Below, one piece after another: positions 6,433 to 39,401 of a stretch of DNA of 64,000 bases. The number at the start of each line of letters is the position of its first letter. The first letter of the stretch is position 1. Location of the stretch: NCBI RefSeq assembly GCF_014697025.1, contig NZ_JACJRC010000001.1, forward strand, positions 310,001 through 374,000, written 5' to 3'. The notes beneath the pieces are model-generated. The model did no database searches, was not told the origin of the DNA, and saw nothing but the letters and a program-made list of their open reading frames with translations. The translations under genes and the position numbers were made by a program. The stretch comes from Alkalinema sp. FACHB-956. GTDB taxonomy: Bacteria; Cyanobacteriota; Cyanobacteriia; Leptolyngbyales; Leptolyngbyaceae.

Positions 6433-6557
6433 GATTTTCATCCACACGATTACATTACCCACGATCGCAACCCACACGATTACAACAATTGTTACTCTCA
6501 GTTGCCTGAATTCTTTTTAGTGATTCACCCATTGATCAATACTGATTGGATAGAACG

Positions 6558-7946
6558 ATGAAACATTCTCGATCCCTATTAAACTTTGTATTAGCTTTTT
6601 TAGCTGCAATAGCATTGTGTTTAACAGTTGTACCCGCAGCTTGGGCCTTCTGTGGCTTCTATGTTGCAAAGGCAGACTCCAAACTATACAACCAAGCCTC
6701 CCAAGTGGCGATCGCCCGCGAGGGTAATCAAACCGTGTTAACCATGGCCAATGATTACCAAGGCGAGGTCAAGGATTTCGCGATCGTGGTTCCGGTACCC
6801 GTCGTGCTGAAAAAGGAACAGGTCAAAGTCGCCAATCCCGCCATTATTGAACGGTTGGACGCCTTCAGTGCCCCACGACTGGTGGAATATTTCGATCCCG
6901 ATCCTTGCCAGCGGTTTGAATTGGAAGATCGGATTCCCATGAGTGCCGTTCCCGCCCCCCAAGCCGCCGGAGAAAGCAAATCCCGCCGCAGTGATGCCTT
7001 TGGCGTGACCATTGAAGCTAAATTCAGCGTGGGTGAATACGACATTTTGATTCTCAGCGCTAAGGAATCCGGCGGATTGGAAACCTGGCTGCGACAAAAC
7101 GACTACAAAATTCCGGACGGTGCCCGCAAACTGCTGCGACCTTACATTCGGCAGAAGATGAAGTTCTTCGTGGCTAAGGTGAATCTTGAGAAGTTTGAAG
7201 ATTCCGGCTTTACCCGCCTGCGACCACTGCAAATGACCTACCAGTCACCGCGTTTTATGCTGCCGATCCGGTTAGGCATGGTGAACGCCCAGCAGGCCCA
7301 GGATTTGATTGTCTACGTACTGTCGCCCCAGGGCCGCGCCGAAGTCACCAATTACCGCACGGTGCAGGTTCCGTCCAATGTCAATATTCCCGAATTCGTT
7401 AAGAACGAATTTGGCCCATTTTACAAAGATCTGTTCAGCACAGCCTACGATCGGGAAAATCGCAACGTCGCCTTTTTGGAATATGCCTGGAATATGGCCA
7501 ATTGCGACCCCTGTTCCGCCGATCCGCTCAACCCCGAAGAACTGAAAGAAGCGGGGGTCTTCTGGCTCGATCGATCGAGTGATGAGCCTAACCCCGGAAT
7601 TTGGAATCGTCGTCGCCCGCCTGTGATGAATAACGGAGTGTACGTCACCCGCTTGCATGTACGCTATACCCGCGACAAATTCCCAGAGGATTTGATGTTC
7701 CAAACGACGAACAATCAGGACACTTTCCAAGGTCGTTATGTGATGCAGCATCCGTTCCTCGGCGAAGCAAAATGTGCAGAAGGTAAACGCTACCGCGCTG
7801 CGTTGCCCCGCCGGTTTGAACAGGAAGCTCAAACCCTCTCAAAATTAACGGGTTGGAATATTAACGACATTCGTAAAAAGCTACCAACCATTAAGCTGGC
7901 AGACTTTAGTTGGTTCGATCGGGTGTGGTTCAATTTCTTGGGTTAA
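6558..7946 (+). CDS. DUF2330 domain-containing exported protein
   Basis: 462 residues from ATG 6558. A classical signal peptide (FVLAFLAAIALCLTVVPAAWA, cleaved after AWA) precedes CGFYVAKADSKLYNQ, the start of a DUF2330 domain in which a Cys directly follows the signal peptide. FAIVVPVPVVLKKEQVKV and LSAKESGGLETWLRQN are further conserved stretches. The protein should be secreted or periplasmic. The function of the family is unknown. A strong terminator follows at 7986-8033, which suggests a single-gene transcript. Confidence 0.85.
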   Translation: MKHSRSLLNFVLAFLAAIALCLTVVPAAWAFCGFYVAKADSKLYNQASQVAIAREGNQTVLTMANDYQGEVKDFAIVVPVPVVLKKEQVKVANPAIIERLDAFSAPRLVEYFDPDPCQRFELEDRIPMSAVPAPQAAGESKSRRSDAFGVTIEAKFSVGEYDILILSAKESGGLETWLRQNDYKIPDGARKLLRPYIRQKMKFFVAKVNLEKFEDSGFTRLRPLQMTYQSPRFMLPIRLGMVNAQQAQDLIVYVLSPQGRAEVTNYRTVQVPSNVNIPEFVKNEFGPFYKDLFSTAYDRENRNVAFLEYAWNMANCDPCSADPLNPEELKEAGVFWLDRSSDEPNPGIWNRRRPPVMNNGVYVTRLHVRYTRDKFPEDLMFQTTNNQDTFQGRYVMQHPFLGEAKCAEGKRYRAALPRRFEQEAQTLSKLTGWNINDIRKKLPTIKLADFSWFDRVWFNFLG

Positions 7947-7985
7947 AGTAACCCGGGTTCTCCGACCAGCCTTGCTATCAAACAA

Positions 7986-8033
7986 TCAGCGGACGATCGC
8001 AGAATCCTCGATCGTCCGCTGACTCTAGTTTTT
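7986..8033 (+). terminator. Rho-independent terminator of the DUF2330 gene
   Basis: A perfect 14-bp inverted repeat (TCAGCGGACGATCG at 7986-7999 and its complement at 8009-8022) with a 9-nt loop is followed by CTCTAGTTTTT. The T run is on the plus strand. Confidence 0.85.
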
Positions 8034-8117
8034 CGAATCTAGCAGTTTATCTAGCATGAAGTACTAAGCTTAACGCTGAGTTTAATGCCGTCATCAACGC
8101 TAAATCTAGTACTGAAA

Positions 8118-9440
8118 TTAATGTTGACTCAATCGCTGATAGACCTGAGTCAGCGCAGTCCCGTCGCCCACATTGCCGGGAAATAGCACGATCGGTAAAT
8201 TGGGAAACTGCGGATGGGTCTCGGACGTGCGCACCATCGACACCCCAGGAATCACCTGACCCAAGAGATAGGCGGTTTGCAGCGCTAGTCCTTGGCTCAG
8301 GGTATCGTTGGAGGTAATGCCCCCTTTGCTAATCAAAAAGCCGATATCCTCTGGCAAATGGCGAATCACATTCATCAGTAAACTGGAAACTGCTTCCCCA
8401 AACTTCAGCCGAGTCTCCACATCATCAAAGGTCAGTTCCTGCCGACTGGTGTAAACCACCGCCGTTTGTCCTGCTTGGTGAATTTGGCTGACCCGATCGT
8501 AAATTTCGGCCAAGAGTTGCCCTGGGATTGCGGGATTGGGGTCTAACAACCGCCCCACTTCTACCTCTACCCCCACCGTCCCCGGTGCTTGCAGTAGGTT
8601 GGCTAATTGTTCCGTCGTCTTTTTCACATGGGAACCGACAATGACAGCCCCCGGTTTGCCCTCCCGAACGTAGCTGGCCATTTCCTCCGGCGCGATCGGT
8701 TGGGGTGGCAGGTTCGCCAAGGCGGTGAGTAAACTAGCCGCACTGCGGAACAAAAAGCGTTTGCCCTGGGAGGCAGCGGCCAAAACCTCTGCTGCAAATT
8801 GATTCAGATCCGCTTGGGTTTCCGCATCCACCACCGCACAGCAATTCTGGGTCAGGTGCAACAGGCGATCGAGCACCCCCGATCGAATATCCGCCAGCAC
8901 AAATCGCTCCACTTGGTTGGCAGCAATACGCCCCTGGGTTTTCTCCTCAACGTAGTCGGGTAGATAGCTATGGCTGTAGCCAAAGACAGAATCCTTCGCA
9001 AATTCCGTTTCGTGCACCGGGGTATCCACGCCATTGACCTTGAGGTAGTGAATGCTGTCCCGCGTCGTGCGACCGCCTTCAAAAAAGGCCGGGGTGAGGA
9101 AATGGGCATCAAATCCCCCCAGTTCCTCGGCAATCACATCGGTTTCGATCGGATAATGGCCGCGCAGGGTGGAGTCCGATCGGCTGACGACTAGGAAATC
9201 CTGAATACCGACTTCAGCGATCGCCGTTTTTAAATTGCGGCACACCTCCCGCGTCACATCTGCGGCTTGTTCTGCGGGCAGTGCTCGGGTATTGGTTAAC
9301 ACGAAAAAAATGGGTGCCTCATCTCGCAATCCCAACTTTAAAGTTTCCACATCCCACTGCATCAACAACAGACAGCTATGAACCGTCTGCGAGCCAGTGG
9401 GATCATCATCTAGCACAATAATTTTGGGGCGAGTATTCAT
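8118..9440 (-). CDS. Four-carbon acid sugar kinase family protein (DUF1537)
   Basis: 440 residues from ATG 9438-9440. The N-terminal domain has the family hallmark VLDDDPTGSQTVH, followed by SRSDSTLRGHYP and LTPAFFEGGRTT. The C-terminal nucleotide-binding half contains FLISKGGITSNDTL and PIVLFPGNVGDGTAL. The family phosphorylates four-carbon acid sugars such as threonate or erythronate in enteric and soil bacteria. The usual catabolic partners (an aldolase and a dehydrogenase) are absent here, so the substrate is open; detoxification or recycling of a sugar acid is a reasonable guess only. Confidence 0.87.
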   Translation of the reverse strand: MNTRPKIIVLDDDPTGSQTVHSCLLLMQWDVETLKLGLRDEAPIFFVLTNTRALPAEQAADVTREVCRNLKTAIAEVGIQDFLVVSRSDSTLRGHYPIETDVIAEELGGFDAHFLTPAFFEGGRTTRDSIHYLKVNGVDTPVHETEFAKDSVFGYSHSYLPDYVEEKTQGRIAANQVERFVLADIRSGVLDRLLHLTQNCCAVVDAETQADLNQFAAEVLAAASQGKRFLFRSAASLLTALANLPPQPIAPEEMASYVREGKPGAVIVGSHVKKTTEQLANLLQAPGTVGVEVEVGRLLDPNPAIPGQLLAEIYDRVSQIHQAGQTAVVYTSRQELTFDDVETRLKFGEAVSSLLMNVIRHLPEDIGFLISKGGITSNDTLSQGLALQTAYLLGQVIPGVSMVRTSETHPQFPNLPIVLFPGNVGDGTALTQVYQRLSQH

Positions 9441-9556
9441 AACCAACAATGCAACCGCAATAGGAAAAACGATGAACTGATGCTTGCTTTAGCCTACCAA
9501 GGAACGATCGCCAAACCCGCCCATTTCCAGAAACTCACCATAGGAATTCCTGCTGC

Positions 9557-9627
9557 AAAACATTGGTGTTGCAAAACATTGGTGTTGCAAAACACGAACT
9601 CTACAAAACACGAACTCTGCAAAATTC
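9557..9627. repeat. Interleaved short tandem repeats
   Basis: The segment is built from TGCAAAACATTGGTGT (two copies), CAAAACACGAACTCT (two copies) and CTGCAAAAT (two copies), lying one after the other between two genes. All share a CAAAA core, which suggests successive slippage or duplication events. Confidence 0.8.
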
Positions 9628-9629
9628 TG

Positions 9630-9665
9630 CAAAATAAAGAGAGACCCACGATCGTGAATCTCTCC
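9630..9665 (-). terminator. Terminator of the minus-strand gene ending at 9715
   Basis: Read on the minus strand, GGAGAGATTCACGATCGTGGG and TCTCTC form a stem with an AGAGA/TCTCT base and a palindromic CACGATCGTG top, followed by TTTATTTT. Confidence 0.7.
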
Positions 9666-9714
9666 CCCAATTTCTAGCCGATAGAACCTAGGCCATCTCT
9701 CTAACGACGGATGG

Positions 9715-10077
9715 TTAGCGACGGATGTCCTTCGCCATATTCCGGAACATATCCATGCTGGTATCCAGTTTGCGCCGTTCTTGAGCTTCTTGGCTGCCAG
9801 CAGCACCATTCTCCGTAGCCTTCGAGGCTGCGGTAGAGCTAGCCGAAAAACTACCATTTTGGCTATTGAAAACCGTTTGGTCTGCTGCAGACACTTCTTT
9901 TACAATCTCAAACTCTTCGCCACCGGCACTCTTCGGGAATGTCCGACGGATCTTTTTGGACTGCCGCATATAGTCGGTATTACCCATGGATCGTGCAGCA
10001 TCATCATCCAAGAAAAAACTTTCCTTGGATTGAGGCTCTTGATCGTTATTTTTCCCAAATCCAAACAGACCTGCCAT
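9715..10077 (-). CDS. Conserved small hypothetical protein, Gly-Phe N-terminus
   Basis: 120 residues. The start MAGLFGFGKNN is followed by SFFLDDDAARSMGN, YMRQSKKIRRTFPK and a Ser/Ala-rich linker; the C-terminus is a charged helix (RRKLDTSMDMFRNMAKDIRR). No signal peptide or membrane helix is present. I believe proteins of this shape are widespread in cyanobacteria, but I know no function. It has its own terminator (9630-9665) and a plausible nitrogen-control promoter upstream (10216-10257), so it is probably transcribed alone. Confidence 0.75.
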   Translation of the reverse strand: MAGLFGFGKNNDQEPQSKESFFLDDDAARSMGNTDYMRQSKKIRRTFPKSAGGEEFEIVKEVSAADQTVFNSQNGSFSASSTAASKATENGAAGSQEAQERRKLDTSMDMFRNMAKDIRR

Positions 10078-10572
10078 GCAATCCTCTCCTACCCCGTATA
10101 AAAACTTGATTTAGTTTTGTAAAAATCTATTCTATCAAAAATTGCTTAACAATCACGTCAAAACTGTTCCCTGTCAGGAATTGGTGAATTAGGAAGCCCT
10201 TGCCGTTAAGCCAGAAATTTACATTTCTTGAGAATTCAATCTGTAATGTAAATTACATTTAACAACATTGCGAATTCCGCAATCATTGACGAGTGCAAAG
10301 CCGGGTCCAATCAACGCTGCATCGACCGTGTGATTTCTTAGCAAATCCCTAACTTATGTATCGATGTTCCTATTGACTCACGCCGAACTGCGAAAATTAA
10401 GTCATAGGTTAGACTTGCTTCCCTGGCTCCACCCCCTACAGTGCTAAGAGGATGCATAAGACACATAGAATTCAGGACTAGGTTCCCAGCATTCGTTCCA
10501 ACCTATTCTGGAATACTACGCATTTCCACTGAAGTTAAGCCCACCTGTCTTGTTTGGTGGAGGAGAACCATT
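10078..10572. other. Divergent intergenic region of about 495 bp
   Basis: No convincing gene. It holds the candidate NtcA promoter described separately and, near 10375, a TTGACT hexamer that could serve the pentapeptide-repeat gene. The segment just before 10573 has a strong ribosome-binding site (GGTGGAGGAGAACC). Confidence 0.6.
10216..10257 (-). promoter_or_regulatory. Candidate NtcA-activated promoter
   Basis: TGTA-N8-TACA, the full NtcA consensus, occupies 10242-10257. Read on the minus strand it is followed after 21 nt by TAAATT (10216-10221), which fits TAN3T. This is the canonical spacing of NtcA-dependent cyanobacterial promoters (20-24 nt) and points toward the 120-residue gene, with a leader of roughly 130 nt. 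On the plus strand no such -10 box is at the right distance. Regulation by nitrogen status is an inference from the motif alone. Confidence 0.45.
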
Positions 10573-11007
10573 ATGCGACGATCGGTGATTTATGCCATTA
10601 CACTGGCCTTTGCATTGCTGATGTCTACACCCGTGCGCGCAGCTGATCCGGATCAAGTCCAGAAGTTGCTAGAAACGGGCGAATGTCAGGGCTGTAACTT
10701 ATCAGGCGCAAACCTACGCCATGCCCATTTGATTGGAGCCGATTTGCGGGGAGCCAACCTAGAAGGGGCAGACTTGTCAGGTGCGAACTTGGAAGGAGCC
10801 GATTTGACGGGTGCCAATCTAGCACGGGCTAACATGGTGGGAACCTTTGCTACCAACGCGGATATGAGTGGCAGCAACCTGGCGCGGGCGGACTTGACCA
10901 ACGCGATCGTTTACAACGCAGAGACCCGAGGGGCTAACATTACGGGCTTAACCTTCCAGAATGCTCAACTCTACGGCAGCGGCATCAACGTCGGCGGCGG
11001 TGACTAG
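10573..11007 (+). CDS. Exported pentapeptide-repeat protein
   Basis: 144 residues from ATG 10573, chosen because GGAGGAGAACC lies just upstream and a signal peptide begins there (MRRSVIYAITLAFALLMS, cleaved at VRA-AD). After a short lead containing two Cys (ECQGC) come about ten A(D/N)LxG-type pentapeptides (LSGANLRHAHLIGADLRGAN and on), expected to form a right-handed quadrilateral beta helix. The family's roles are varied and often unknown. Here the signal peptide puts it in the periplasm or thylakoid lumen. Confidence 0.87.
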   Translation: MRRSVIYAITLAFALLMSTPVRAADPDQVQKLLETGECQGCNLSGANLRHAHLIGADLRGANLEGADLSGANLEGADLTGANLARANMVGTFATNADMSGSNLARADLTNAIVYNAETRGANITGLTFQNAQLYGSGINVGGGD

Positions 11008-11010
11008 GTG

Positions 11011-11085
11011 TCTGCCACGGTGGCTAAGTACTAGCTAATCTGCCACGGTAGCTCAGTACCAGCCAAGGTGACTAAGTGCTTACCC
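11011..11085. repeat. 28-bp imperfect tandem repeat after a stop codon
   Basis: Two 28-bp units (11011-11038 and 11039-11066), beginning TCTGCCACGGTGGCTAAGTA and TCTGCCACGGTAGCTCAGTA, are followed by a partial third copy. They lie directly downstream of the pentapeptide-repeat gene. Confidence 0.8.
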
Positions 11086-11215
11086 AAGTAACTCAATGGG
11101 TCACTAACATCTACCAAGAAGGAGCAGAGCTTGCCCGTCTCTGCCAGCTTCCCGACCTTTCTTCAACCGCACAATCTTCCCCTAAATGCCCCCTGCCCAT
11201 CTAAAAGACGAGAGC

Positions 11216-12160
11216 CTAGCCGCCCCATACCTTCTCTAGCACCGTCGAAGGTGCAATATCGGCCACTTGCCCAGTGGAGGACTTGATCGATAGGACGCGA
11301 TCGTTCTTGGGGAGCAACTTATTAGGATCCGCCTGACCCAGTAGCACTAAAGTAAATGCCTGGGACGCGATAGATAGGTGCATCGTATCGCTGTTCAGAC
11401 ACATGACTAGGCTGGCTCCAGTCAGCATTGCCACCAATTGCCCAAGATTATCTGGAGCGGTGATCTTAAGCCCTGGTAAGGCTTCCACAAGCAGCTTGAC
11501 CCAACTGTCATCCTCGGAGGTTTGTGCCAGCACCAAGGGTAACTCAGGCTGCTTTTTCTGAAAGTCTTGAAGAATCAGTCGCCAATTGTCAGCGGGGTAA
11601 ACACCATCAGCGGATTTGGCATCACCACAAACCACAACATAGCCCCCAGAAGCCAACCCCAGACGTTGCCGTTCTTGGTCAGCCCATTGCAGATCTTTGG
11701 CGGGCACACTGACTTTGAAATCGGGCAGTGGCGTACTGAGATCCATGCCCTGCACCAGATCGTGGTAGGTCTGGGCGAGGTACTGATTGCCCTTGTAAGG
11801 GATCGATCGCGTGAGGAAGAGCTCACCCGCTCCTCCCGCAAACCCAACCCGATTTGGAATCCCACTCAACCAGAGGAGAAACCCCACTGACCATCGGTTA
11901 TCCAGGGTAATCGCAGCTTCATATTCCCGATCGCGCACCGTTCCCAGCAAGTTACCCCAGTCGGCTAGACTGTTCCTCGCCTGAAAGTCGAACGCAATTA
12001 CTTCATTGACTGACTTGGAAACTCGGTAGGCTTCCTTAGCTCTAGGCTCAACGACTACATCAATCTGAGCTTCGGGATAGCGTTTTTTCAAATCATCGAT
12101 CGTTGGAAAAAAGAGGATTTGATCACCGATTTCACCGGGAACAAGAGCAAGGATTCTCAT
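11216..12160 (-). CDS. Glycosyltransferase family 9 (heptosyltransferase-like)
   Basis: 314 residues. The GT9 features are an N-terminal LALVPGEIGDQILFFPTIDDL (nucleotide-fold start with a GEIGD loop), a central VVVCGDAKSADGVYP at the start of the second Rossmann domain, and NSDTMHLSIASQAFTLVLLG, the conserved donor-binding segment. GT9 enzymes add ADP-heptose or related sugars to lipopolysaccharide cores. Many cyanobacteria lack heptose but keep GT9 paralogues for other surface glycans. It is 162 nt downstream of the HlyD-type gene on the same strand. Confidence 0.86.
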   Translation of the reverse strand: MRILALVPGEIGDQILFFPTIDDLKKRYPEAQIDVVVEPRAKEAYRVSKSVNEVIAFDFQARNSLADWGNLLGTVRDREYEAAITLDNRWSVGFLLWLSGIPNRVGFAGGAGELFLTRSIPYKGNQYLAQTYHDLVQGMDLSTPLPDFKVSVPAKDLQWADQERQRLGLASGGYVVVCGDAKSADGVYPADNWRLILQDFQKKQPELPLVLAQTSEDDSWVKLLVEALPGLKITAPDNLGQLVAMLTGASLVMCLNSDTMHLSIASQAFTLVLLGQADPNKLLPKNDRVLSIKSSTGQVADIAPSTVLEKVWGG

Positions 12161-34129: not shown

Positions 34130-37100
34130 ATGAACAGCCGATTTCTTGAGCGTCTTCACAGCCCTGAGCGTCCCGTCCTTGTCTTTGATGGCGCAATGGG
34201 CACCAATATCCAATCCCAAAATCTCACCGCAGAGGATTTTGGGGGCGCGGAGTATGAAGGCTGCAATGAATATTTGGTCGTGACGAAACCGGAGGCGATC
34301 GCCAAGGTTCACCGGGATTTCCTTGCGGCGGGCGCAGATGTGATCGAAACCGATAGCTTTGGGTCCAGTCCGCTGGTGCTGGCGGAGTATGATCTGGCTG
34401 ATCGGGCCTACGAGTTGAGCAAAAAATCCGCTGAATTGGCCCGCCGTTGTGCTGATGAGTTTTCCACACCAGAGAAGCCTCGCTTTGTCGCGGGTTCGAT
34501 CGGCCCTGGCACCAAACTCCCTACCCTCGGTCACATCACCTACGACGAACTCAAGGCAAGCTTCACCACCCAGGCCGAGGGCTTATACGACGGGGGTGTG
34601 GATCTATTCATCGTCGAAACCTGTCAGGACGTGTTGCAGATCAAGGCCGCGTTGAACGCGATCGAATCCGTCTTTGCCAAAAAAGGATCGCGGTTGCCCT
34701 TGATGGTGTCCGTGACGATGGAAGTTCAAGGCACGATGTTGGTGGGCACGGATATTTCGGGTGTGCTGGCGATTTTGGAACCCTACCCGATTGATGTCTT
34801 GGGGCTGAACTGTGCTACTGGCCCCGATCGCATGGCGGAACATATTAAGTATCTAACGGAAAATGCCCCGTTTGTCGTCTCCTGCATTCCCAACGCGGGG
34901 TTGCCGGAAAATATCGGTGGCCATGCCCACTACAAACTGACGCCGCTAGAAATGCGCATGGCGTTGCATAAATTTATCGAAGACTGGGGCGTGCAGGTCA
35001 TCGGGGGCTGCTGTGGAACCCGACCCAGCCACATCCAAGCCTTGGCCGAGTTGGCCGCTGAAATGACGCCCAAGCCGCGATCGGTGCGCATTTCAGAAAA
35101 TCCCACCACGCGGGAGCCGTTGCAATATACCCCCTCAGCAGCTTCCATCTATTCCGCCCAACCCTACGAGCAGGACAATTCGTTCCTGATTGTGGGCGAA
35201 CGCTTGAACGCCAGCGGTTCCAAGAAAGTGCGGGAATTGCTCAACGAAGATGATTGGGATGGCTTGCTCGCGATCGCGAAATCGCAGGTCAAAGAAGGCG
35301 CACACGTTTTGGATGTCAACGTAGACTACGTGGGGCGCAACGGTGAGCGAGACATGAAGGAATTGGTTTCGCGATTGGTGACGAATACAACGTTGCCCTT
35401 GATGCTCGACTCCACGGAATGGACGAAGATGGAAGCGGGCCTCAAGGTAGCGGGCGGCAAGTGCATTCTGAACTCGACCAACTACGAAGATGGCGACGAG
35501 CGCTTCTTCAAGGTGTTGGAACTGGCCAAGGAATACGGGGCCGGGGTCGTCATCGGTTGCATTGACGAAGAGGGCATGGCGCGCACGGCGGAGAAAAAAT
35601 TCCAAATCGCCCAGCGGGCCTACCGGGATGCGGTGGAGTTTGGCATTCCGCCCCATGAAATTTTCTACGATACCTTAGCCTTACCCATTTCCACCGGGAT
35701 TGAGGAAGACCGGGAAAATGCCAAAGCCACGATCGAATCCATCCGCATGATTCGGGAAAATCTACCCGGTGTGCATTTCATGCTGGGGGTTTCCAACGTG
35801 TCCTTCGGCTTAAGTCCAGCGGCGCGGATTACGTTGAATTCCATGTTCCTCCATGAGGCGATGCAGGTGGGCATGGATGGCGCGATCGTCTCCGCTGCCA
35901 AGATTTTGCCATTATCGAAAATCAGCGAGGAACACCAGAAAGTTTGCCGGGATTTGATCTACGACAATCGCGCGTTTGACGGCAATATCTGCACCTATGA
36001 TCCGTTAACTAAGCTGACGGAAGTCTTTGCCGGGGTCAGTACAAAGGATGCCCGAGCCAGCAGTTCCCTCGCTGATTTACCGATCGACCAACGCCTGAAG
36101 CAACACATTATCGACGGTGAGCGGATTGGTTTAGATGACGCTTTGAAGATTGCCCTAGAGGAAGGCCACAAAGCGCTGGATATTATTAATACCTTCCTGC
36201 TAGATGGTATGAAAGTGGTGGGGGAATTGTTTGGCTCCGGTCAAATGCAATTGCCCTTTGTGTTGCAGTCAGCGGAAACCATGAAGTCAGCGGTGGCGTT
36301 TCTGGAACCCTTTATGGAGAAGGTGGAAGGAGAAACGGACGATCGGGGCAAAGGTAAATTCCTGATTGCGACCGTTAAGGGGGATGTCCATGACATTGGT
36401 AAAAACCTCGTGGATATCATCCTGACTAACAACGGTTACAAGGTTGTTAACTTAGGCATTAAACAAACCGTTGACGCGATCGTGGATGCCTACGAACAAC
36501 ACAAACCCGATTGCATTGCCATGAGTGGCTTGTTAGTGAAGTCTACAGCATTCATGAAAGAGAATCTGGAGGTCTTCAATGAGAAGGGTATTACGGTTCC
36601 GGTGATTTTGGGAGGGGCAGCCCTGACGCCTAAGTTCGTCTATGGTGATTGTCAGGATGCCTACAACGGGCAAGTGATTTACGGGAAGGATGCCTTTGCC
36701 GATTTGACCTTTATGGATCGGCTCATGCCTGCCAAACAGCAGAAGGCTTGGAGCGATACGGAAGGATTCACCGGAGAATTTGCCCAATTTAACCAAAAGG
36801 GCAAAAAGGCGATCGAACAGGCGGAACGGGAACTGAACGGGGATGTTGCGCCGAAGTCCGATGAGCCGGAGGTGATTGATACGGTGCGATCGGAGGCGGT
36901 GGACATTGAGATTCCACGACCCACGCCACCCTTCTGGGGCACCAAGATTCTCACAGCAGCAGAGTTAAATCTAGAAGAACTCTTCTGGCACATGGATTTG
37001 CAAGCGCTGATTGCGGGGCAGTGGCAGTTCCGTAAACCGAAGGAACAGTCCCGTGAGGAGTACGATGCGTTCCTGGCGGAGAAGGTATATCCGGTATTGG

Positions 37101-37744
37101 AGGAATGGAAAGCGAGACTCCGCAATGAGCAATGGCTAGAACCGACGTTGGTCTATGGCTATTTCCCCTGTGCGGCGGAAGGCAATTCGGTGCATGTGTA
37201 CGATCCCTTGGTAATTGAGCAGGGCTTAACGCCGCAAACTGCAACTCCGTTCGTGACTTGGCAATTCCCGCGCCAGAAGTCCTTGCGTCGTCTTTGCATT
37301 GCTGATTTCCTTCGCCCGATCGAACAAAATACGTTTGATGTGTTGCCGATGCAGGCGGTGACGATGGGGGAAATTGCGACGGAGAAGGCGCAGGAACTCT
37401 ACAAGGGCAATAGCTACACCGATTATCTCTATTTCCACGGGATGGCGGTGCAGTTGGCGGAAGCGCTGGCGGAGTGGAGTCACGCGCGGATTCGTCGGGA
37501 GTTGGGCTATGGCGAGTTGGAGCCGGATAATATTCGCGATATGTTGGCGCAACGCTATCAGGGTTCGCGCTATAGCTTTGGGTATCCCGCTTGTCCGAAC
37601 GTGATGGATCAGGTGCCGCAGTTGCAGTTGTTGGCGTGCGATCGGATTGGGATGCACATTGATGAGAGTGAGCAGTTGTATCCGGAGCAATCCACGACAG
37701 CGTTTGTAGTGTATCACCCCGTCGCGAAGTACTTTAGTGCGTAG
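34130..37744 (+). CDS. metH: Cobalamin-dependent methionine synthase
   Basis: 1204 residues from ATG 34130 (usual length about 1200). Four modules in order: homocysteine-binding barrel with [11 protein letters not shown] and the zinc Cys in NCATGPD and [11 protein letters not shown]; pterin-binding domain ([30 protein letters not shown]); cobalamin-binding domain with [14 protein letters not shown] (the D-x-H-x-x-G base-off motif) and SGLLVKS; and the C-terminal SAM-binding activation domain ([21 protein letters not shown]). It transfers the methyl group of methyltetrahydrofolate to homocysteine. A terminator-like hairpin follows the stop. The last 36 codons are duplicated at 38598-38705. Confidence 0.96.
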
Positions 37745-37767
37745 GAACGAGTTCGCGTGATGGATTT

Positions 37768-37812
37768 CCCTGGGGCGATGGCCATGAGGCATTACCCCAG
37801 GGCTAGTTCTTT
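37768..37812 (+). terminator. Likely metH terminator
   Basis: CCCTGGGG (37768-37775) and CCCCAGGG (37795-37802) form an 8-bp GC-rich stem followed by CTAGTTCTTT. It separates metH from xisH. Confidence 0.55.
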
Positions 37813-37839
37813 GTGCCAAAATGTAGGGAGTAGAACCTA

Positions 37840-38256
37840 ATGCCCCGTAAGGACTTGTTCCATGACTTAGTTAAACAGGCTTTAAGCCAATCGGGTTGGG
37901 TGATTACAGATGATCCGCTTTATCTAAGCATCGGTGATGTGAACATCCAGATTGATTTGGCAGCAGAGCCGTTAATTGCCGCAGAAAAGGAAGGACAAAA
38001 AATCGCAATCGAAGTGAAGAGCTTTGTGAATACTTCCAAAATCACGGCATTCTATGCTGCACTAGGTCAGTACTTGACTTACAAAGTTGCTTTGAAGTTG
38101 GAGGAACCCGATCGTTCGCTTTACTTAGCAATTCCCATAGCAACCTACGAATCATTATTTCAAGAGGTTCTAATTCAAGCAACGCTGCGTGACTATCCAA
38201 TCAAGCTGATTGTGTATGATAAGTTAACCCAGGAGATTGAGCTATGGAGAGACTAG
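37840..38256 (+). CDS. xisH: XisH-family protein (fdxN element excision controlling factor-like)
   Basis: 138 residues. PD-(D/E)XK-like nuclease core: VNIQIDLAAEPLIAAEKEGQ then IAIEVKSFVNTSKITAFYAA (E-x-K). Matches the XisH family known from Anabaena, where XisH and XisI are needed with the recombinase XisF for excision of the fdxN element. Here, as in most cyanobacterial genomes, there is no recombinase next to it, so the pair is likely a stand-alone module of unknown purpose. It overlaps xisI by 13 nt, a standard two-gene operon. Confidence 0.9.
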   Translation: MPRKDLFHDLVKQALSQSGWVITDDPLYLSIGDVNIQIDLAAEPLIAAEKEGQKIAIEVKSFVNTSKITAFYAALGQYLTYKVALKLEEPDRSLYLAIPIATYESLFQEVLIQATLRDYPIKLIVYDKLTQEIELWRD

Positions 38257-38579
38257 AATACTACCGTCAATGCCTTCAACAATTCCTGGCAAATTATGCC
38301 AATTATGGTGCGAAACGCGAAGGCTTGGAAACGCAGGTGATTGTTGATACAACTCATGATCATTATCTTTTATTGAGGACGGGTTGGGAGAAGAATAAAC
38401 GCATTCACACTTGCATTTTTCATTTTGATATTAAAGATGGCAAGATTTGGGTTCAGGAAAATAATACGGATATTGAGATCGATCGAGATCTAGAAGAGAT
38501 GGGAATTTCCAAGCAAGAGTTGGTGATTGGATTTCATCATCCTTCGATGCGGGAATGTTCGGATTATGCGATCGCGTGA
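38244..38579 (+). CDS. xisI: XisI-family protein
   Basis: 111 residues. Typical family sequence: YRQCLQQFLANYANYG, DTTHDHYLLLRTGWEK, RIHTCIFHFDIKDGKIWVQ, NNTDIEIDRDLEEMGI and a C-terminal VIGFHHPSMRE. XisI is the regular partner of XisH and is expected to bind it. The start codon lies inside the end of xisH, which implies translational coupling. Confidence 0.9.
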   Translation: MERLEYYRQCLQQFLANYANYGAKREGLETQVIVDTTHDHYLLLRTGWEKNKRIHTCIFHFDIKDGKIWVQENNTDIEIDRDLEEMGISKQELVIGFHHPSMRECSDYAIA

Positions 38580-38597
38580 TGATGCTAATAGAAGTCA

Positions 38598-38705
38598 GTG
38601 CGATCGGATTAGCCCGCCTATTGATGAGAGTGAGCAGTTGTATCGATCGCGATCAACAACAGTTGTGTGGTTTATCACCCCGTCGCGAAGTACTTTAGTG
38701 CGTAG
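38598..38705 (+). pseudogene. Second copy of the metH 3' end (remnant)
   Basis: 108 bp that align with the last 109 bp of metH (37636-37744). Three blocks are identical: GTGCGATCGGATT, a 24-bp block containing GATGAGAGTGAGCAGTTGTA, and a 33-bp block beginning TATCACCCCGTCGCGAAGTA that includes the metH stop. The parts between are diverged. In the metH frame it starts [13 protein letters not shown] and then shifts. The copy lies just past xisI, so xisHI is bracketed by direct repeats of the metH tail about 962 bp apart. Confidence 0.85.
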
Positions 38706-38810
38706 CGTCTAGAATGGAATCGATCGGTATCTCTTGGGATTCTGCCGATCGATTCCCCAAGTTCGCTTTGGATTGAGACCGGTCTTGAAAGTAATGCGGA
38801 GCGATCACCT

Positions 38811-39401
38811 ATGGTTCTTGCGACAGACAAAACTGCCATCAACAACGAATCCTATACGGCTGAACAATACCTTGAGTTGGAGGTTTCAGCCGAAACTCGT
38901 AGCGAATATTGGAATGGAGAAATTGTGCCCATGTCTGGTGGAACCCCGACACACAATAAAATCAGCAGTAACATGAATGGACTCCTGTGGTTAGGGTTGA
39001 AGGGGAAGCCTTACGATCTTTTTATTGCGGATCAACGTCTTGCGATTCCCGATCGCAACATTTATGCCTATCCCGACATCATGATCTTACCGCGTCCGAT
39101 CGAGCTTCAAGCCGGACGAAAAGATACGGTAATAAATCCAATTTTGATTGCTGAAGTATTGTCTGATTCGACTGAGGCGTACGATCGAAATAAAAAGTTT
39201 TCTGCGTATCGGACGATTTCTACATTTCAAGAGTATGTATTAATTGACCAATATCAGCCCCATGTTGAACATTACGTTAAACAGGGTTCCCATCAGTGGC
39301 TTTTCACAGAATACGATGGTTTGGATCAGCAAATTATGCTGACTTCGATCTCGGTTGAAATTAGTTTGGTAGATTTATATGAGAATGTTGTCTTTGAATG
39401 A
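38811..39401 (+). CDS. Uma2-family (DUF820) restriction-endonuclease-like protein
   Basis: 196 residues with GGAG 9 nt before the ATG. Family landmarks: YLELEVSAETRSEYWNGEIV, MSGGTPTHNKISSNMNGLL, YAYPDIMILPRP, LIAEVLSDSTEAYDRNKKF, and FQEYVLIDQYQPHVEHY. It differs strongly from the copy at 2053-2634, so it is not a recent duplicate. It is the last intact gene of the small accessory stretch after metH. Confidence 0.87.
   Translation: MVLATDKTAINNESYTAEQYLELEVSAETRSEYWNGEIVPMSGGTPTHNKISSNMNGLLWLGLKGKPYDLFIADQRLAIPDRNIYAYPDIMILPRPIELQAGRKDTVINPILIAEVLSDSTEAYDRNKKFSAYRTISTFQEYVLIDQYQPHVEHYVKQGSHQWLFTEYDGLDQQIMLTSISVEISLVDLYENVVFE

What the first reader, a model, noticed from the sequence alone, without database searches (positions are those of the whole stretch)
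37636..38705. xisHI bracketed by two copies of the metH 3' end
About 108 bp at 38598-38705, just after xisI, match the last 109 bp of metH including its stop, with long identical blocks and a diverged middle. The xisHI pair therefore lies between direct repeats of a core gene's tail, with a unit of about 962 bp. Two readings are possible: the module inserted at the metH end and restored it, as elements that target gene ends do; or homologous recombination with a genome that already had metH-xisHI left both tails. XisH/XisI are known from DNA-element excision, so a link with mobility is attractive but not shown. The two direct repeats could also allow loss of xisHI by recombination.
Basis: partly seen in the sequence, partly recalled or inferred. 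Interest (0 to 1): 0.72.

Follow-up and report, generated by a model that had tools for sequence, protein, structure and literature searches.

The report
Gene modules piling up behind metH
In this cyanobacterium a small gene pair (xisHI) sits between the working end of a core gene (metH) and a broken copy of that same end, and some related cyanobacteria show the same scar with other small toxin-antitoxin or defence genes, which suggests that DNA pieces carrying a metH end were added there again and again, with no integration enzyme of their own in sight.

Summary
The repeat is real: the last 109 bp of metH (37636-37744) recur as 108 bp at 38598-38705, 83.5% identical, E=2e-28. The second copy is a frameshifted relic. 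Tying it to xisHI is too narrow. A profile of the metH end shows a second piece downstream, same strand, within 10.5 kb, in 16 of 388 cyanobacterial genomes; DNA comparison adds three loci. Cargo differs: toxin-antitoxin pairs, restriction genes, STAND ATPases, Uma2, xisHI. A control gene end (glyS) gave an extra match in 1 of 291 genomes. The window and genome G024 carry two tail-headed blocks, tail-xisHI and tail-Uma2, in opposite order. Left borders vary widely, no tyrosine recombinase lies within 20 kb of metH on the contigs held for 17 relic genomes, and no Pfam recombinase appeared in 67 ORFs. Best reading: additive, homology-guided recombination at metH, not a site-specific element. Other xisHI pairs also often lie between direct repeats (8 of 29; 0 of 29 acetyltransferase loci; 26 of 587 random windows), some being tails of groEL or a PHP gene. 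A tilt of borders toward GATCG (HIP1 core) is only suggestive.

The parts
34130..37744 (+). metH, B12-dependent methionine synthase (1204 aa), the receiving core gene
   Evidence: Pfam domains S-methyl_trans, Pterin_bind, B12-binding_2, B12-binding, Met_synt_B12; homologues in 58 of 58 relatives
37636..37744 (+). functional metH tail, upstream copy of the repeat, ends at the stop codon
37768..37802 (+). hairpin CCCTGGGG...CCCCAGGG just after metH; similar stem letters follow metH ends in G010 and the 91-nt relic in G024
   Evidence: seen by eye in the sequences; no terminator scan was run
37840..38256 (+). xisH
   Evidence: Pfam XisH PF08814, E=3.2e-52; solved relatives 2okf, 2inb
38244..38579 (+). 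xisI, overlaps xisH by 13 bp
   Evidence: Pfam XisI PF08869, E=2.9e-41; solved relatives 3d7q, 2nlv, 2nvm, 2nwv
38598..38705 (+). displaced, frameshifted metH tail (relic)
   Evidence: 83.5% identical to 37636-37744
38811..39401 (+). Uma2-family gene headed by the relic; the block 38686-39390 is shared with G024 at 81%
   Evidence: Pfam Uma2 PF05685, E=4.9e-31; shared block

Best explanation
The doubled metH end is the scar of an additive recombination event. DNA carrying a metH 3' end plus its own downstream module recombined with the resident metH by homology inside metH; its other end was joined within the resident metH tail (illegitimate joining), or a circular piece went in by a single crossover. 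The chimeric metH stays intact, and the resident tail with its own module is pushed downstream and decays. In the window I read tail-hairpin-xisHI as the incoming block and tail-Uma2 as the resident one. The same process recurs at metH across cyanobacteria and probably at some other genes. Shown: the scar, its recurrence, the swapped block order in two genomes, one clean comparison with sisters that lack the insert (G147), absence of a nearby tyrosine recombinase. Inferred: the recombination route, the roles of incoming and resident block, and that addictive modules favour adding over replacing.
For: Repeat and relic. Second metH piece downstream in 16 of 388 genomes by profile and three further loci by DNA. 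Control: glyS end, 1 of 291 genomes with two matches; 6 of 67 metH genes against 4 of 450 other ORFs in the named loci (with L200 counted as metH). Tail-xisHI and tail-Uma2 in opposite order in the window and G024. In G147 the relic plus 18-25 nt past the stop aligns with the metH end and flank of five sister loci, while the flank of its functional tail aligns with none of the five. Successive relics in G386, the farther one shorter. Left borders from 24 to about 775 nt before the stop. No PF00589 within 20 kb of metH on the contigs of 17 relic genomes. No Pfam recombinase in 67 ORFs of 17 loci.
Against: No same-genus genome without the insert was available, so the event in the window itself is not shown by an empty site. 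In 6 of 7 comparisons sisters agree with the functional tail more often than with the relic; this fits decay of the relic but does not show that the functional tail is foreign. XisH and the metH end of the window and G024 are equally diverged (85%), so no recent transfer is visible. In Symploca SIO1C2 part of the sisters' downstream DNA lies before the relic. Borders tend toward certain places, which a random join does not predict. The metH and glyS searches differ in sensitivity (profile against single sequence).
Confidence: 0.6

Rival explanations
1. Site-specific elements use the metH 3' end as attachment site. The repeats are attL and attR, the small units are cis-mobilisable remnants, and the integrase acts in trans or has been lost.
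For: Direct repeats with an intact restored gene end; most repeats end at or near the stop; 10 of 16 short relics start within three stretches about 36-50, 88-91 and 105-109 nt before the stop, a mild preference; successive copies as in tandem islands.
Against: Left borders range from 24 nt to about 775 nt, too wide for one core. No PF00589 within 20 kb of metH on the contigs of 17 relic genomes, though several contigs end soon after metH. No Pfam recombinase among 67 ORFs. Serine recombinases were not searched genome-wide.
Confidence: 0.17
2. Local duplication: a segment starting inside metH and running downstream was duplicated in place, and one copy of each module was later lost or replaced.
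For: Both tail copies share flank beyond the stop in G010 and G031; in G386 the end of a cargo gene is also repeated.
Against: In G147 the flank of the functional tail is absent from five sister loci. In the window the modules behind the two tails are unrelated (XisHI and Uma2), and both are found behind metH tails in another genome.
Confidence: 0.12
3. XisH is a nuclease that cuts the metH end, so that xisHI spreads by homing and brings a replacement tail.
For: XisH belongs to a solved fold (2okf, 2inb), recalled as PD-(D/E)XK nuclease-like. xisHI pairs are often flanked by direct repeats (8 of 29), including groEL and PHP gene tails.
Against: The same metH scar occurs with many cargos that lack XisH, and xisHI pairs sit beside unrelated genes.
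Confidence: 0.06

Closest known systems
Homology-assisted illegitimate recombination / small variable segments (PMC2884548, section 14 and passages read; it cites work in Acinetobacter, Pseudomonas stutzeri, Streptococcus pneumoniae)
   Same: Small DNA segments at a site between conserved genes, no recombinase, homology on one side.
   Different: There the suggested outcome is replacement of the resident segment; here the resident tail and module are kept and pushed downstream, repeatedly at one core gene across a class.
Integrase-dependent islands in the 3' end of a protein gene, including cis-mobilisable elements (recalled, e.g. icd, guaA, fda)
   Same: Target gene end restored; displaced copy at the far side; tandem accretion.
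   Different: No integrase near; widely varying borders; units down to about 350 bp (G147) or 962 bp (window).
Integron cassette arrays (recalled; PMC8618304 seen only in a listing)
   Same: Small modules, often toxin-antitoxin, in series, each with a repeat at one border.
   Different: The repeats are copies of a gene's coding end; no tyrosine recombinase nearby at metH; attC folding was not examined.
fdxN element of Nostoc PCC 7120 (PMC4874684, passages)
   Same: Contains xisH and xisI.
   Different: There xisHI are needed for excision by XisF of an element inside a gene; here xisHI stand without a recombinase, metH is intact, and the flanks are gene-end copies.

Membership tests
Integrase-dependent element in a gene 3' end (ICE/IME/CIME) | direct repeats at both ends, one restoring the target gene | tested here: met
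Integrase-dependent element in a gene 3' end (ICE/IME/CIME) | tyrosine recombinase in or beside the element | tested here: not met
   No PF00589 within 20 kb of metH on the contigs held for 17 relic genomes; nearest on the same contig is 29 kb away in G147
Integrase-dependent element in a gene 3' end (ICE/IME/CIME) | serine recombinase in or beside the element | tested here: inconclusive
   None among Pfam hits of 67 ORFs between metH and relics; no genome-wide search was run
Integrase-dependent element in a gene 3' end (ICE/IME/CIME) | one crossover core shared by insertions | tested here: not met
   Left borders 24-181 nt in 16 short relics (L073 corrected) and up to about 775 nt in others
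Homology-assisted illegitimate recombination | homology on one side of the insert | tested here: met
   metH itself
Homology-assisted illegitimate recombination | non-homologous or microhomology junction on the other side | tested here: inconclusive
   Borders vary; GATCG at the border in 7 of 16 relics, expected 0.9; donor molecules are not available
fdxN-type excision element | XisF-type recombinase and excision of the element | tested here: not met
   The 962-bp unit holds only xisHI; excision itself is not testable here
Integron cassette array | attC folding sites | not tested
   no folding of the repeats was run
Integron cassette array | integron integrase nearby | tested here: not met
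   no PF00589 near metH in 17 relic genomes
Toxin-antitoxin module (XisHI) | toxicity of one partner neutralised by the other | not testable with these tools
   only position among toxin-antitoxin modules was seen

The most novel reading that the evidence does not exclude
Cyanobacteria have a recombinase-free cassette traffic. Small addictive modules (toxin-antitoxin pairs, restriction genes and, by position, XisHI) travel as units headed by the 3' end of a host gene, dock by homology on that gene's end in another genome, and are joined on the far side at HIP1-type GATCG words. Because losing a resident addictive module is costly, recombination adds instead of replacing, so tail-headed cassettes pile up behind metH and other genes and can be permuted. 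This would give HIP1 a role and place XisHI among addiction modules.
Probability: 0.2. Interest if true: 0.8.

Novelty: new variant of a known kind. Interest (0 to 1): 0.56.

Why it matters
It turns one odd repeat into a class-wide, checkable pattern: a core gene whose end keeps receiving new modules and keeps the scars in order, so gain events can be read. It offers a natural test of whether toxin-antitoxin and restriction modules bias recombination toward addition. It gives a concrete place to test the suspected link between the HIP1 palindrome and recombination (PMC4390886, passages). It also supplies position evidence on XisHI, whose specific roles are called unclear (PMC4874684, passage).

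Tried and rejected
Assembly duplication: rejected (83.5% identity, different flanks). XisHI as the cause of the scar: rejected as general cause, since relatives with other cargo have it. Tyrosine-recombinase island: searched, none near. A first control with six concatenated gene ends in 155 genomes was unreadable because of paralogues and a capped list, and was not used; glyS alone replaced it. glyS used one sequence while metH used a profile, so its sensitivity is lower. BrnT as a second module family: flanking repeats in 5 of 26 loci at E<=1e-3 and 2 of 26 below 1e-6, or 7 and 5 of 26 with a shorter gap; in the three I looked at (L265, L272, L288) the repeat was not seen to be a gene tail, so the pattern is not shown for every toxin-antitoxin family. 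The 169-nt repeat at another xisHI pair of the own genome (L258) was suspected to be the tail of the adjacent large gene; tested, not so. In the border test the entry for L073 was wrong, because the two compared stretches overlapped; one search gives 122 nt, no GATCG, and the count of 7 of 16 stands. That test left out L078, L079, L084, L086, L148 and L173 (long or right-truncated relics) and a 20-nt third hit in L077. Rfam: only a group II intron in L144, away from metH. Literature listings for metH integration, toxin-antitoxin arrays in cyanobacteria, XisH/XisI with toxin/antitoxin and core-gene hotspots with addiction showed no title or abstract start that describes this; I saw listings only for those, capped, and subscription papers are not held.

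Full report
Observation. The last 109 bp of metH (37636-37744) recur at 38598-38705 as 108 bp, 83.5% identical, E=2e-28. The second copy reads metH residues 1170-1190 and 1193-1204 in two frames; it is a relic. Between the copies lie a hairpin (by eye) and the overlapping pair xisH-xisI. Behind the relic comes a Uma2-family gene. metH itself is confirmed by its Pfam domains.

Recurrence. The whole metH protein searched in 58 genomes already showed separate short C-terminal pieces downstream of metH in G031, G024, G007 and G052. I fetched DNA downstream of metH from 40 of the relatives and, with the window, found a second metH tail in 6 of 41 loci (window, G031, G010, G007, G024 with two, G052; a 20-nt hit in L072 was not counted). 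A 45-residue profile of the metH end was searched in 388 genomes of the class: 362 matched and 27 had more than one match. Those 27 and G010 were searched again. In 16 of them the extra match lies downstream on the same strand within about 10.5 kb: G000, G007, G024, G031, G052, G109, G147, G176, G177, G230, G267, G305, G324, G341, G350, G386. Two of these (G305, G324) are weak by protein (E 0.04 and 0.02) but clear by DNA, and G109 matches an earlier part of metH rather than the extreme end. The other 11 of 27 are second metH genes, pieces elsewhere or weak matches. Of six f36 genomes in the search five have relics (G177, G386, G350, G324, G305; not G359) and they share ancestry, so independent events are fewer than loci.

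Is metH special? The glyS end was searched in 291 genomes: 280 matched and one (G230) had two matches (where its second match lies was not listed). 16 of 362 against 1 of 280 gives p=7e-4. glyS was searched with one sequence and metH with a profile, so the contrast is somewhat inflated. In the named loci 6 of 67 metH genes have a downstream tail repeat (5 of 66 as scripted, plus L200, which the script filed under other ORFs although it is metH), against 4 of 450 other ORFs (p=5e-4). In the earlier loci 438 other ORFs gave hits in 3 genes, one of them a cargo gene in the G386 locus.

Polarity. Five sister loci of G147 (L202, L193, L199, L201, L189) were compared. The relic of G147 with 18-25 nt past the stop aligns with their metH end and flank, while the flank of its functional tail aligns with none of the five at E<=1e-6. 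So new DNA entered between metH and its old end there. In G386 two relics follow one another, the farther one shorter, as expected from successive additions. Against a simple picture: in Symploca SIO1C2 part of the downstream DNA of three of four sister loci lies before the relic; and in 6 of 7 comparisons sisters agree with the functional tail more often than with the relic, L173 being the exception. That fits decay of the relic but does not show that the functional tail is foreign.

The window compared with G024. G024 reads metH, cargo, a 24-nt metH relic, Uma2, a 91-nt metH relic, hairpin, xisH cut by the contig end. The window reads metH, hairpin, xisHI, relic, Uma2. The blocks tail-Uma2 (81% over about 705 nt) and tail-xisH (74% over 394 nt) are shared in opposite order. 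The simplest account is two metH alleles with different downstream modules that met by recombination in opposite roles. XisH of the two genomes is 85% identical over the part present and the metH C-terminal part 85%, so nothing points to a recent event.

Cargo. Between metH and the last relic of 17 loci I called 67 ORFs of at least 68 residues (overlapping shorter ones dropped) and scanned them with Pfam; one of the 67 is the metH piece of L173. Found: BrnA (L043 and L077; L043 below cut-off, its BrnT seen), BrnT (L082, L083), BrnA (L082), HicA (L077, L078), a HicB-like match just below cut-off (L078), PIN (L034), DUF433 with DUF5615 (L034, L084), AF2212-like (L075), DUF4160 with DUF2442 (L076), NTP_transf_2 and XisHI (L052), Uma2 (L034, L078, L079), CoiA-like nuclease genes (L074, L077) with an N6/N4 methylase (L074), NACHT-TIR (L081), NB-ARC (L173), Bro-N (L042), helicase/ResIII (L043), subtilase (L033), a weak RHH match (L148). 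Many ORFs had no match. That DUF433/DUF5615 and DUF4160/DUF2442 are toxin-antitoxin-like is recalled. L052 also carries ordinary metabolic and regulatory genes over 10 kb, and the roughly 230-nt insert of G147 has no listed gene. No recombinase, transposase or integrase family appeared. PF00589 is present in each of the 17 relic genomes searched, but the closest on a metH contig is 29 kb away, in G147; contigs of several drafts end soon after metH. I did not measure how often such modules occur at random intergenic sites, so an enrichment for addictive cargo is not shown.

Borders. In 16 short relics of 14 loci the repeat starts 24-181 nt before the metH stop (L073 corrected to 122). In others it starts much further left: metH residue 947 (L173), 1044-1050 (L079, L078), 1111 (L086, which lies away from the full metH), 1125-1130 (L084, L148). 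Most repeats end at or within 8 nt of the stop; G031 shares 13 and G010 60 nt beyond it. A GATCG word lies at the left border in 7 of 16 relics against 0.9 expected from its density in each locus; measured in the functional copy it is 9 of 16 against 2.4, p about 1e-4. These words are partly fixed by conserved codons, the border definition is fuzzy and several genomes are related, so I treat this as a lead. The groEL relic (below) also starts at GATCGC. PMC4390886 (passages read) reports some indication that HIP1 functions in site-specific recombination and, at low efficiency, illegitimate recombination, and says there is no evidence linking it to homologous recombination.

Other xisHI pairs. 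30 xisH loci of the family were fetched; 29 could be tested. Direct repeats flank the pair in 8 of 29 at E<=1e-3 and 7 of 29 below 1e-6, window included. Controls: 26 and 12 of 587 random windows taken from metH-region loci, and 0 of 29 acetyltransferase loci. Without the window the stricter comparison gives p=7e-5. Recognisable tails of the adjacent gene: metH (window) and groEL (G266: groEL, xisHI, 39-nt groEL relic at 87%; Cpn60 by Pfam). In G025 six copies and in G014 five hits of a repeat that encodes a gene-end-like peptide (..INYDIKYRMGRD..) were found. In G025 each copy runs into the start codon of a module (TGATG in five, TAATG in one): nucleotidyltransferase genes three times (the first followed by HepT-like), DUF3644, XisH, DUF4258. 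That the peptide is the end of a restriction-methylase protein is recalled; no parent gene is adjacent. L224 and L243 carry repeats that I could not assign to a gene; L241 and L245 are weak or short. Outside that set, in the own genome, the C9 pair lies between the tail of a PHP-domain gene (Pfam) and a 65-nt copy of it (78%), the C19 pair between 169-nt repeats of unproven origin, and the C14 pair showed none.

Mechanism. Shown: the scar, its recurrence, no tyrosine recombinase nearby, variable borders, swapped order in two genomes, one clean comparison with sisters. Inferred: homology-guided entry through metH, closure by illegitimate joining or by a single crossover of a circle, retention of the resident module. 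The published neighbour is homology-assisted illegitimate recombination (PMC2884548, section 14 and passages read), invoked there to explain replacement of segments. That addition prevails here because many resident modules are addictive is a hypothesis.

Verdict. xisHI as a special mobile element is not supported. The finding is one case of a recurrent additive pattern at metH, a new variant of a known kind, with the bolder cassette reading at about 0.2.

Noticed in passing
L250 (G025:C1:4940000-4958000), 6481-11995: Array of six copies of a 95-121 bp gene-end-like repeat, each running into the start codon of a small module (NTP_transf_2 with HepT-like, DUF3644, XisHI, DUF4258); G014 (L251) has a similar, more broken array.
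   Followed up: partly
L142-L158, metH region: metH with about 0.2 kb upstream and a short stretch downstream is about 86-95% identical in DNA between cyanobacteria titled Symploca, Okeania, Crocosphaera, Calothrix, Trichodesmium and Leptolyngbya, with little else alike around it in several pairs (13 pairs compared): metH itself seems to move as a single gene.
   Followed up: partly
L086 (G302:C17:1255000-1265000): A 94-residue metH end in a short frame, about 225 kb from the full metH and on the other strand, followed by another weak tail hit.
   Followed up: no
L173, 4459-5232 nt after the metH stop: Chamaesiphon sp. 336R keeps an open 258-residue metH C-terminal piece (Met_synt_B12) behind an NB-ARC gene.
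   Followed up: no
L146, 1093-1488 nt after the metH stop: Symploca sp. SIO3C6 has a copy of a 5' part of metH downstream of metH, so scars are not limited to the 3' end.
   Followed up: no
L258 (G000:C19:87000-101000): Another xisHI pair of the own genome lies between 169-nt direct repeats (90%), with a third partial copy farther out near PIN-like and other small genes; the repeat is not the tail of the adjacent large gene.
   Followed up: partly
L074 and L077: The same CoiA-like nuclease gene (DUF7830/DUF6035) follows metH directly in genomes of two different families, f42 and f36.
   Followed up: no
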